Source: Billgrantia pellis (GTDB taxonomy: Bacteria > Pseudomonadota > Gammaproteobacteria > Pseudomonadales > Halomonadaceae). Taken from it: DNA of 64,000 nucleotides. The number at the start of each line of letters is the position of its first letter. Position 1 is the first letter of the stretch. The notes under the pieces are model-generated. The model did not search any database, was not told the origin of the DNA, and saw only the letters and a list, made by a program, of their open reading frames with translations. Below, in pieces: positions 1 to 62,400 of the stretch. The position numbers and the translations under genes are program-made. The stretch covers positions 806,001 through 870,000 of the forward strand of contig NZ_VTPY01000003.1 of NCBI RefSeq assembly GCF_008297955.1, read 5' to 3'.

Positions 1-18
1 TTGACGCGCCTGGTGTAA
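1..18 (+). CDS. 3' end of an upstream gene, possibly leucyl aminopeptidase (pepA)
   Basis: The first six codons in frame 1 read LTRLV and then a TAA stop, so the window may begin inside the last codons of a forward gene. In many gammaproteobacteria the gene directly upstream of holC is pepA, whose product often ends in a leucine-rich tail. The assignment rests only on gene order and five residues. It could equally be a chance stop. Confidence 0.25.
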   Translation: MTRLV

Positions 19-86
19 CAGCGAAGGCGCCGCAATGGGCTCGCTGGTGCGAGTCCGTTGCTCCACAGCTATTACCACGGAGGCGA

Positions 87-198
87 GGGGCGCCGACGGG
101 CAGGCCGGCGCGGAGGTCCTACGCCAGGGATGGCGTCGGTAGCGTACAGGGAAGTATCCACAGTGCCTCCGCGAAGGCCTGCCCGTCGGGAAAGCCCC
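87..198. repeat. Dispersed palindromic intergenic repeat, copy 1
   Basis: This is a nested inverted repeat. Outer arms GGGGC (87-91) and GCCCC (194-198) enclose GACGGGCAGGCC (95-106) pairing perfectly with GGCCTGCCCGTC (176-187), then CGCGGAGG (109-116) with CCTCCGCG (166-173). An inner hairpin ACGCCA/TGGCGT (121-126/131-136) has a GGGA loop. A 25-nt core at 139-163 is identical at 24 of 25 positions to 62322-62346. It lies between the preceding gene end and holC, ending 12 bp before the holC start. Confidence 0.85.
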
Positions 199-210
199 GG
201 GCAGACTCTG

Positions 211-651
211 ATGACCCAAGTCGATTTCTACATACTCCCCGACACCACGCTGGAAGCGCGGCTCGACTTCGCCTGCCGGCTGGCCGAGACCATCGCCGGC
301 AAGGGCTACCGGCTGCACTTGCACGCCGAGGACGAGGCCATGGCCAGCGATCTCGACGAGCGGCTGTGGACCTTCCGCCCCGAGGCCTACCTGCCCCATG
401 CCCTGCTCGGCAGCGACATGGCCGAGAGCGTGGCGGTGACCCTCGGCTGGGAGCACCCACCCGAGCCGAATCCCCAAGCCCCAATGGCGCTGCTCAACCT
501 CGACCCGGGCATCCCCGAGTGGTTCTCGCGCTTCGAGCGGGTCGCTGAGATCATCAACCAGCACCAGCAGGTGCTCGTCGCCAAGCGCGAGTGCTGGCAG
601 ACCTACAAGCAGCGCGGCTATCCCGTCAAAGCGCATCAGCTACGTGGCTAA
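211..651 (+). CDS. holC: DNA polymerase III subunit chi
   Basis: The 146-residue product fits HolC, the chi accessory subunit of the polymerase III clamp-loader complex, which links the replisome to single-stranded-DNA-binding protein. It opens MTQVDFYIL, typical of chi, and carries family-like segments such as LDFACRLAETI and LWTFRPEAYLPHALLG. The frame extends upstream to position 58, but that part lies in the palindromic repeat and has no chi-like sequence, so I take the ATG at 211. It sits directly before valS, the order seen in many gammaproteobacteria (pepA-holC-valS). The repeats before and after it suggest valS also has its own promoter. The SSB partner is encoded in the same window at 57180-57773. 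Confidence 0.93.
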   Translation: MTQVDFYILPDTTLEARLDFACRLAETIAGKGYRLHLHAEDEAMASDLDERLWTFRPEAYLPHALLGSDMAESVAVTLGWEHPPEPNPQAPMALLNLDPGIPEWFSRFERVAEIINQHQQVLVAKRECWQTYKQRGYPVKAHQLRG

Positions 652-664
652 TACCGCCAAGCCA

Positions 665-878
665 GGGGCGCCGGGGGCAGGCCGAAGAGGAGGTCTTTTG
701 CCATGGGTGAGGAGCATGCTCCGAACGGGCTGGCCATGGATGGCCAGCCCTGGTCCTGCAAGCGGAGCAGGATGCGAGAGCGCAGCAGGGCAAAAGTAGC
801 GCCCAGGGATGGGTTCACAGCGCCTCCTCGCAGGCCTGCCCCCGGATCAGCCCCGGTGACGAAACTCCCGGCGCCCCT
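665..878. repeat. Dispersed palindromic intergenic repeat, copy 2 (long variant)
   Basis: This fills most of the 364-bp gap between holC and valS. Outer arms GGGGCGCCGGG (665-675) and CCCGGCGCCCC (868-878) pair perfectly, as do GGGGGCAGGCC (673-683) and GGCCTGCCCCC (833-843). TTTTGCC (696-702) pairs with GGCAAAA further in. About 80 extra bases in the middle form further hairpins, including GGCTGGCC/GGCCAGCC and TCCTGC/GCAGGA. The core motif near 796-820 is recognisable but more diverged than in copies 1 and 3. No gene is seen here. Confidence 0.75.
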
Positions 879-899
879 CTGAAGTGTTATCACACCTGG

Positions 900-929
900 C
901 TGACGCCCACTCCCCCATCGCGCTATAAT
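900..929 (+). promoter_or_regulatory. Probable sigma-70 promoter of valS
   Basis: TATAAT at 924-929 is preceded by CTGACG at 900-905 with an 18-bp spacer. It lies just after the repeat and 87 bp before the valS start, so valS can probably be transcribed independently of holC. Confidence 0.55.
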
Positions 930-1015
930 CGAGCCCATTTTTCGCACGCTTTCGACGACTTTCCGCCGCCCGGCCCACGACCCGGCGGCGATCATTTCTG
1001 GACCCGGAACGCCGC

Positions 1016-62256: not shown

Positions 62257-62272
62257 CTATATGACGGCCAGC

Positions 62273-62370
62273 GGCGCCGGGGACTGGTCGTAACGGGGGT
62301 CCGATTCCAGGGAAGGAATCGGTAGCGTACAGGGAAGTATTCACAGCTCCCCCGCAACGACCTGTCGCGG
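62273..62370. repeat. Dispersed palindromic intergenic repeat, copy 3
   Basis: Arms GACTGGTCGT (62282-62291) and ACGACCTGTC (62357-62366) pair with one mismatch; CCGATTCC (62301-62308) and GGAATCGG (62315-62322) form an inner hairpin with loop AGGGAA. The 25-nt core at 62322-62346 differs from copy 1 (139-163) at only one base. The arms differ in sequence from copy 1 but still pair. It lies 16 bp after the uvrA stop. Confidence 0.85.
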
Positions 62371-62400
62371 CCAAGCCGCAACTAACTGACCAGCCATAAA

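What the first reader, a model, noticed from the sequence alone, without database searches (positions are those of the whole stretch)
87..198. Structured dispersed repeat with compensatory changes between copies
Three intergenic sites (87-198, 665-878, 62273-62370) share a common architecture. Copies 1 and 3 carry a 25-nt core that differs at one base, and a short hairpin with an AGGGA-type loop just before it. The sequences of both the outer arms (GACGGGCAGGCC/GGCCTGCCCGTC versus GACTGGTCGT/ACGACCTGTC) and the inner stem (ACGCCA/TGGCGT versus CCGATTCC/GGAATCGG) differ between copies but stay paired. This covariation suggests selection for a folded DNA or RNA, not just a spreading sequence. 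I know of no named element of this form.
Basis: seen in the sequence. Interest (0 to 1): 0.72.

Follow-up and report, generated by a model that had tools for sequence, protein, structure and literature searches.

The report
Scattered repeat with paired CsrA-type hairpins
A short folded DNA repeat, scattered between genes in Halomonas-type and some other gamma-proteobacteria, usually carries two small hairpins that look like docking sites for the RNA-binding regulator CsrA; if CsrA does bind, many unrelated messenger RNAs are tied to one global control system.

Summary
The three window copies belong to a family of about 110 nt: at least 20 copies in this genome, present in 56 of 61 same-genus genomes and in 16 of 370 genomes of the class (both counts include this one). 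Covariation is very strong: over 71 copies, 31 of 39 pairs show two-sided changes. No Rfam family reached its threshold at the copies tested, and no paper held any of six core strings.

The key result is what the hairpins are. Both inner hairpins have the loop A-N-G-G-A-N closed by a C-G pair. Stems change; of the loop only the two N positions vary. This is the published CsrA/RsmA target (PMC7652899, passages). Where both are found, the GGA motifs lie 22-25 nt apart in 160 of 172 copies. The genome encodes one CsrA.

Best reading: a dispersed palindromic element that, transcribed in the sense direction, offers a CsrA dimer two sites in 3'-UTRs and gene spacers. CsrA binding is inferred, not shown. 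Against a purely local RNA role: about a third of copies between co-directional genes are antisense and keep the loop equally well.

The parts
87..198 (+). Copy 1, whole element: outer stem 87-91/194-198, arms 93-106/176-189, P2 109-116/166-173
   Evidence: sequence, fold, R1 match G000:C3:806090-806187 E 2.1e-16
118..139 (+). Copy 1, P3 hairpin; loop AGGGAT at 126-131 closed by C-G: CsrA-type site
142..164 (+). Copy 1, GCG - P4 hairpin (loop AGGGAA 148-153, closed by C-G) - tail TCCACAGT, where most copies have TTCACAGC
665..854 (+). Copy 2, whole element with long P3; arms 670-683/833-845, outer stem 665-669/850-854
   Evidence: R1 matches only its inner part 806718-806844, E 4.1e-4
696..795 (+). 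Copy 2, long P3 domain: outer stem 696-702/789-795 enclosing nested hairpins
   Evidence: same kind of insert by eye in L077, L079, L082, L109, L114, L126
727..750 (+). Copy 2, nested hairpin GGGCTGGCC-ATGGAT-GGCCAGCCC: CsrA-type site inside the insert; its GGA is 69 nt from that of P4
   Evidence: a sub-threshold, non-significant RsmW match lies at the same place (18 bits, gathering 52, E 1.8)
799..821 (+). Copy 2, P4 hairpin (loop AGGGAT 805-810) with tail TTCACAGC
867..877 (-). Detached inverted copy of the element's 5' end beside copy 2; in relatives with an inverted element at this site it is the element's own end
   Evidence: comparison of holC-valS spacers by eye
62271..62379 (+). Copy 3, whole element: outer stem 62271-62275/62375-62379, arms 62282-62291/62357-62366
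   Evidence: R1 match G000:C3:868274-868370 E 5.7e-17
62301..62322 (+). Copy 3, P3 hairpin; loop AGGGAA 62309-62314 closed by C-G: CsrA-type site
62325..62347 (+). Copy 3, P4 hairpin (loop AGGGAA 62331-62336) with tail TTCACAGC

Best explanation
This is a dispersed palindromic element of about 110 nt, found between genes in a patchy set of Gammaproteobacteria. A long outer stem holds a junction from which two short hairpins (P3, P4) project. Each hairpin has the loop ANGGAN closed by C-G, mostly 22-25 nt apart. When the element is transcribed in the sense direction, as the 3' UTR of the gene just upstream or as an operon spacer, it most likely binds one CsrA dimer across both hairpins. Each copy would then affect decay or downstream translation of its own mRNA, and all copies together would buffer free CsrA. 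Shown: architecture, covariation, loop rule, spacing, intergenic position with a sense bias, presence/absence and opposite orientation between species, one CsrA gene. Inferred: transcription, CsrA binding, the effect on mRNA, and how copies spread.
For: (1) Loop rule. With only the flanks fixed (GTAGCG-N12-TTCACAGCGC), all 150 matches that one search listed (nine of the 56 genomes with matches; more were not listed) were tallied: 144 are NNC-ANGGAN-GNN. A 150, G 150, G 148, A 149 of 150; the two N positions carry 0.82 and 0.19 bits. P3, which no search pattern fixed, follows the same rule in 70 of 71 aligned copies, and in 90 of 117 non-identical copies from named genomes within the 45 nt before the core. 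(2) The literature match: SELEX consensus RUACARGGAUGU, mostly six-base hairpin loops; ANGGAN loop contacted by RsmE; bridging of sites 10-63 nt apart, optimum >18 nt (PMC7652899, passages). (3) Stems covary while loops do not. (4) GGA-GGA spacing 22-25 nt in 160, 18 in 11 and 50 in 1 of 172 copies; 23 of the 195 copies were left out for lack of an upstream A-N-GGA-N within 45 nt. (5) Six long-P3 variants and window copy 2 move the hairpin but keep ANGGAN. (6) Sense bias between co-directional genes: 54 same against 25 opposite in the pattern copies, 11 against 3 in this genome. (7) One CsrA gene, near-identical over its core to CsrA/RsmA of solved structures. (8) G-U exceeds A-C on the sense strand, 38:12 and 62:37.
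Against: No binding, expression or RNA data were available. About a third of copies between co-directional genes are antisense (25 of 79; 43 of 139), and these keep P4 as well as sense copies (42 of 43 against 95 of 96; the search pattern held P4 letters, so worn copies are under-sampled in both), so loop conservation may not come from the local mRNA. In window copy 2 the two sites are 69 nt apart along the chain, beyond the cited bridging range, unless the fold brings them together. CsrA does not explain the conserved tail UUCAC or the long near-perfect arms. The G-U excess is weak in the widest set (110:82, p 0.05), by columns (14 against 6, p 0.12), reversed in P0 (9:16), and not significantly different between transcribed and untranscribed settings (Fisher p 0.16). 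354 of 370 genomes of the class lack the core pattern. SELEX favoured stems of four or fewer pairs, whereas P3 has about eight. In the widest set 15 of 195 copies overlap a called gene.
Confidence: 0.6

Rival explanations
1. A selfish DNA element (MITE- or REPIN-like). Its folded single strand is recognised by an unknown mobility enzyme, and the loops and tail are that enzyme's recognition code. Any CsrA likeness is secondary.
For: Presence/absence differs between close relatives at three sites. Copies stand in opposite orientation at orthologous sites. Antisense copies keep the loop. Distribution in the class is patchy with local amplification, up to 59 exact matches in one genome. Arms are copy-specific yet 95% complementary in 17 Marinobacter copies, as DNA palindrome correction would give. 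The conserved tail is not needed by CsrA.
Against: It does not predict the CsrA rule (fixed A, GGA and C-G closing, free N at positions 2 and 6) in two separate hairpins. The sense bias (54:25) and the G-U excess favour RNA. I saw no conserved terminal sequence or clear target duplication at the few sites compared. No partner transposase was searched for.
Confidence: 0.23
2. A general mRNA 3'-end hairpin (as recalled for REP, ERIC and NEMIS repeats) that protects or processes transcripts by its strong fold, without CsrA.
For: Very stable folds (-75.7 and -43.9 kcal/mol for copies 1 and 3), position soon after stop codons (median 40 nt from stop to 50 nt before the core, n=117 copies with a same-strand upstream gene), sense bias.
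Against: A stability role needs no fixed loop sequences; here the loops are among the most conserved parts while stems vary.
Confidence: 0.12
3. The compensatory changes come only from DNA-level palindrome correction and gene conversion between copies; there is no selected structure.
For: Long near-perfect arms with few G-U pairs (62 of 2790 cells); shared P3 stem types across non-orthologous copies.
Against: Correction does not keep unpaired bases constant, yet loop and tail bases are nearly invariant in A3 while stems vary, and P3 loops recur in genera with otherwise unlike sequence.
Confidence: 0.05

Closest known systems
TwoAYGGAY RNA (RF01731) and reverse-complement Bacillaceae-1 (RF01690)
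   Same: Two strong matches each to the CsrA-binding hairpin motif; proposed on that ground to be CsrA-binding RNAs (PMC4333381, passages).
   Different: RF01731 gave no match at E up to 5 in window 1-1000 or in ten loci with copies. Here the loop is ANGGAN, often AGGGAN; a long outer stem and a conserved tail are present; the element is dispersed in tens of copies.
CsrB / RsmY / RsmZ sponge RNAs (RF00018, RF00195, RF00166)
   Same: Repeated GGA hairpins that bind CsrA/RsmA (PMC4383904 and PMC7652899, passages).
   Different: Those are dedicated small RNAs; here two sites per element, scattered between genes. In this genome RF00018 and RF00166 gave no match at the E used and RF00195 none over cut-off.
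REP / REPIN, ERIC, NEMIS and other MITE-like repeats
   Same: Small, palindromic, intergenic, multi-copy repeats (recalled; titles and starts of abstracts).
   Different: Unit size, two-hairpin centre and loop code differ as far as I recall those families. Arms are not shared between copies in Marinobacter (37% identity over 136 pairs), unlike terminal repeats recognised by a transposase.

Membership tests
CsrA/RsmA binding RNA | ANGGAN hexaloop closed by C-G, with GGA fixed | tested here: met
   P4 144 of the 150 listed matches; P3 70 of 71, 90 of 117 in the wider set; in this genome P3 17, P4 17, both 14 of 20 by script
CsrA/RsmA binding RNA | two sites 10-63 nt apart for dimer bridging | tested here: met
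   172 of 172 measured copies at 18-50 nt, 160 at 22-25, 23 of 195 not measurable; window copy 2 is an exception at 69 nt; range from PMC7652899
CsrA/RsmA binding RNA | host encodes CsrA | tested here: met
   this genome only: one CsrA, E 1.7e-26; sequence, solved relatives
CsrA/RsmA binding RNA | measured binding, transcription of the site | not testable with these tools
   needs EMSA, CLIP-seq, RNA-seq
TwoAYGGAY (RF01731) | match to the family's covariance model | tested here: not met
   no RF01731 match at E up to 5 in window 1-1000 (two copies) or in 10 loci with copies
CsrB/RsmY/RsmZ sponge RNA | match to the sRNA family models | tested here: not met
   element copies match none over gathering (one RsmW match below it, E 1.8); in this genome RF00166 and RF00018 no match, RF00195 ten weak matches, none over cut-off and none at the places
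MITE | terminal inverted repeats conserved between copies | tested here: not met
   Marinobacter arms: 95% paired within a copy (17 copies), 37% alike between copies (136 pairs). In Halomonas-type copies the arms are largely shared, so this depends on lineage
MITE | target-site duplication at filled against empty sites | tested here: inconclusive
   only short flanking repeats (TGGC; GGCCA/AGCCA) seen by eye at two sites; also expected from palindrome deletion
REP/REPIN | partner RAYT transposase and GTAG-flanked short palindrome (features recalled) | not tested
   no RAYT search was made; GTAG precedes P4 in 70 of 71 copies of A3 by its columns 57-60 but not in most other genera shown

The most novel reading that the evidence does not exclude
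A mobile, invertible regulatory cassette. Long inverted arms let the element flip in place: sense orientation puts a CsrA dimer site into the neighbouring transcript, antisense removes it. Insertion, loss and inversion would thereby wire and unwire dozens of genes to the Csr system over short evolutionary times, and the copies together would act as a distributed CsrA sponge.
Probability: 0.15. Interest if true: 0.86.

Novelty: new variant of a known kind. Interest (0 to 1): 0.68.

Why it matters
If CsrA binds, one post-transcriptional regulator has tens of ready-made docking sites per genome, spread by a repeat family across several gamma-proteobacterial lineages and mostly downstream of genes rather than in the leader regions where its known targets are mainly described. 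It would give small palindromic repeats a defined protein partner and show a route by which RNA regulons are rewired. It also yields a ready test set: many copies with varied stems and constant loops.

Tried and rejected
Rfam: no family over threshold at the copies tested. The window's RsmW match at 727-750 is below threshold (18 bits against gathering 52, E 1.8) and is not used as proof; other sub-threshold matches that touch copies 1 and 2 (HOTTIP_3, mir-3547, sR10) were taken as chance. A Halomonas copy against phage records: no match; against plasmid records: one Halomonas megaplasmid. A Pectobacterium copy against E. coli: matches in 5 of 5426 genomes, so hardly a native E. coli repeat. 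Viral contigs: one pattern match, L169, whose flanks I did not analyse.

A result I first took as support proved an artefact. Searches gave P4 intact in 92 of 96 sense but 35 of 43 antisense copies (p 0.009). My pattern had demanded GCG and so miscounted the GCC...GGC variant. Recounted on the loop alone it is 95 of 96 and 42 of 43, p 0.52. The claim was dropped, and the result now counts against a purely local RNA role.

The sense/antisense difference in G-U against A-C cells is in the expected direction but not significant (68:35 against 27:24, Fisher p 0.16). Comparison of arms at orthologous Marinobacter sites by a genus-wide search failed: only one genome was held in the genus searched. 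The 87 same-orientation and 29 'flipped' pairs are not independent. Of the 29, five are two separate elements in one locus (positions) and two rest on identities of 26-49%; some same-orientation pairs are also of low identity. The outputs were cut, so parts of their lists were not seen. A first covariance alignment of other genera (A2) was not used, as R1 fits them poorly. Paper searches: no hit for the terms; two searches listed papers of which none appears, from the listing, to describe such a repeat; one search gave only the Rfam 12 paper, whose passages do not describe it; PMC2267715 and PMC10969869 were searched for terms only, PMC2864571 too.

Full report
What is there. Window 87-198, 665-854 and 62271-62379 hold three copies of one element. 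The window is G000:C3:806001-870000 of a 4.35 Mb genome. Named records with the same element are mostly Halomonas and close genera, so this genome is probably of that kind; it was not identified. The core pattern, up to 3 mismatches, has 3 matches in the window and none in 100 dinucleotide shuffles.

Family size. A covariance model (R1) from five copies of this genome finds 20 copies at E up to 0.001 in the genome. Two weaker matches look like worn copies, and one more lies on the opposite strand of a counted copy. Only 143-150 first-look candidates per genome were scored in most genomes, so counts are lower bounds. Of 29 genomes (this one and 28 relatives) 21 have matches. Of the 19 same-genus genomes 18 do, with 11-46 copies each; G001 has none. 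The flank-only pattern is in 56 of 61 same-genus genomes, this one included, with no match to the reversed control pattern. In the class, 16 of 370 genomes, this one included, match the stricter core pattern, control again 0, with 59 matches in one genome and 25 in another. By my count of the titles, with recalled taxonomy, these are 65 Halomonadaceae, 15 Marinobacter, 8 Microbulbifer, 3 Shewanella, 4 Alteromonadaceae-type, 2 Pectobacterium and 22 others; all are gamma or unassigned except one Nitratireductor MAG contig (L123).

Architecture. From outside in: an outer stem P0; arms P1 and P2; a first inner hairpin P3; the linker GTAGCG (AGCG in other genera); a second hairpin P4; the tail UUCACAGC; and the returning arms. 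A short helix pairs the bases just before P4 with those after the tail. In 195 copies its ends read GCG/AGC in 172, GCC/GGC in 11, CCC/GGG in 2, GTC/GAC in 1 and other in 9; 13 of the 14 copies with the three variant kinds are outside the window's genus.

Covariation. On 71 copies, nearly all of Halomonadaceae type with one of Microbulbifer (A3), my named structure has 39 pairs. 91.0% of cells are standard pairs (shuffled 79.2), 31 pairs have two-sided changes (shuffled 19.7), and the covariation score is 0.361 (shuffled 0.147; slid at most 0.091). RNAalifold on its own finds 34 pairs, 25 with two-sided changes. P4 alternates mainly between CCC/GGG, TAC/GTA and TCC/GGA. P3 has at least five stem types. 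Relatedness of copies is not removed by these controls, and the copies were chosen for ungapped, high-scoring matches to R1.

The loops. Both hairpins obey one rule: C-[A N G G A N]-G. For P4, with only its flanks fixed, 144 of the 150 matches listed obey it; these come from nine of the 56 genomes with matches. For P3, never fixed by a search, the rule holds in 70 of 71 copies of A3. Among 117 non-identical pattern copies, 90 show it within 45 nt of the core. Of the other 27, six are long-P3 variants that carry the hairpin further upstream (L077, L079, L082, L109, L114, L126), five carry it in reverse complement (L080, L084, L097, L148, L160), and the other 16 have altered, shortened or no such loop. 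In this genome a script finds the P3 site in 17 and the P4 site in 17 of 20 copies, both in 14; by eye one further P4 was missed because of a one-base deletion in the tail. Two such hairpins (three Watson-Crick pairs each) 16-30 nt apart arose once in 60 Markov replicas of the window, both strands; the window itself has two such pairs.

Why CsrA. The review PMC7652899 (passages) gives the SELEX consensus RUACARGGAUGU, six-base loops in most ligands with AC and GU paired, the ANGGAN loop with contacts to A and GGA in RsmE, and two-site bridging at 10-63 nt with an optimum above 18. The P4 of the copy at C3:368981 (GUACAGGGAUGU) fits the consensus letter for letter; window copies 1 and 3 differ from it at one base. 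The GGA-GGA distance is 22-25 nt in 160 of 172 copies; 23 further copies of the 195 had no A-N-GGA-N within 45 nt and were left out. In window copy 2 it is 69 nt, outside the cited range along the chain. The genome has one CsrA, matched over its core by CsrA/RsmA chains of solved structures. CsrB and RsmZ gave no match in it and RsmY only below cut-off; in those calls RsmZ and RsmY passed no cut-off in any of 14 control genomes, CsrB in one (E. coli among those it rang in), so a missing classical sponge is possible but not shown.

RNA or DNA. Among pair cells that are not Watson-Crick, G-U (tolerated in the sense RNA only) exceeds A-C (tolerated in the antisense RNA only): 38 against 12 in the helices of A3 other than P0 (p 0.0003), though by columns only 14 against 6, p 0.12, and in P0 it is 9 against 16. 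In the arms of 112 varied copies it is 62 against 37, p 0.015, and in 195 copies 110 against 82, p 0.051. This is modest support for sense RNA.

Context. With a simple codon-based gene caller (overlaps up to 40 nt ignored), 114 of 118 pattern copies overlap no called gene. Between co-directional genes 54 are sense and 25 antisense; convergent spacers 18, divergent 6; the rest lack a called neighbour on one side. For 22 copies of this genome (20 plus the two weak ones) the numbers are 11, 3, 5 and 1, and two overlap a called ORF. In the wider, partly redundant set of 195 it is 96 sense, 43 antisense, 20 convergent, 11 divergent, and 15 overlap a called gene. Antisense copies keep P4 as well as sense copies. 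That is a real difficulty for a purely local mRNA role. It fits recent insertion or inversion, antisense transcription, or selection on the element's own spread.

Dynamics. At pepA-holC, holC-valS and uvrA-rplQ, relatives differ: element present, absent, reduced to a remnant, or (holC-valS in G008, G005, G016) present in the opposite orientation (G002 could not be oriented at the first two sites). The two genomes identical in the first 100 residues of valS (G010, G008) lack copy 3. One search lists further orthologous spacers with opposite orientation. In 17 Marinobacter copies the arms are 95% complementary within a copy but only 37% alike between copies. In L087 and L117, at what looks like one orthologous spacer, they are different sequences though each is near-perfectly paired. 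How such copy-specific arms arise is unexplained; DNA palindrome correction is a candidate.

Verdict. The feature is real, widespread in some lineages and, as far as my searches reach, unnamed. The reading that it presents paired CsrA sites rests on a precise sequence-structure match and needs a binding test. It is filed as a new variant of known kinds (dispersed palindromic repeat; CsrA-binding RNA), not as a member of the TwoAYGGAY, CsrB/RsmY/RsmZ, REP or MITE families, for which defining features were not met or not tested.

Noticed in passing
window 696-795; L077, L079, L082, L109, L114, L126: Recurrent long-P3 variant: an insert with several hairpins that itself carries a C-ANGGAN-G hairpin (GGCCATGGATGGCC and variants).
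   Followed up: partly
L080, L084, L097, L148, L160: Variant in Vreelandella and Halomonas records whose P3 domain carries the hairpin in reverse complement (CCGCCATCCATGGCGG), giving a GGA loop on the opposite strand.
   Followed up: no
L075, L143, L162, L187, L189: Two separate elements on opposite strands, cores about 190-270 nt apart, in one intergenic region; at least one member has a GCC...GGC, CCC...GGG or GTC...GAC junction helix.
   Followed up: partly
Marinobacter loci, e.g. L087, L113, L117, L143, L161: Arms of about 28 bp are near-perfect within each copy but unlike between copies; the origin of copy-specific palindromic arms is unexplained.
   Followed up: partly
A3 columns 75-80; window 157-162, 814-819, 62340-62345: The unpaired UUCACA stretch after P4 is nearly invariant and not explained by CsrA binding.
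   Followed up: no
L287 4001-4109 (E. coli plasmid NZ_CP058751.1): A relative of the Pectobacterium copy occurs in 5 of 5426 E. coli genomes, all from waste water (4 plasmids, 1 chromosome); in this one it lies beside an alcohol dehydrogenase gene, with transposase fragments nearby.
   Followed up: partly
L232, L239, L241, L242, L243, just after the uvrA stop: Short tandem repeats (about 7 nt, such as AAGGAGC or CTGTAAG) follow uvrA in relatives that lack the element there.
   Followed up: no
L250, after the uvrA stop: CRISPR-like array (three repeats CGGTTCATCCCCACGCATGTGGGGAACGC seen) directly downstream of uvrA in G021.
   Followed up: no
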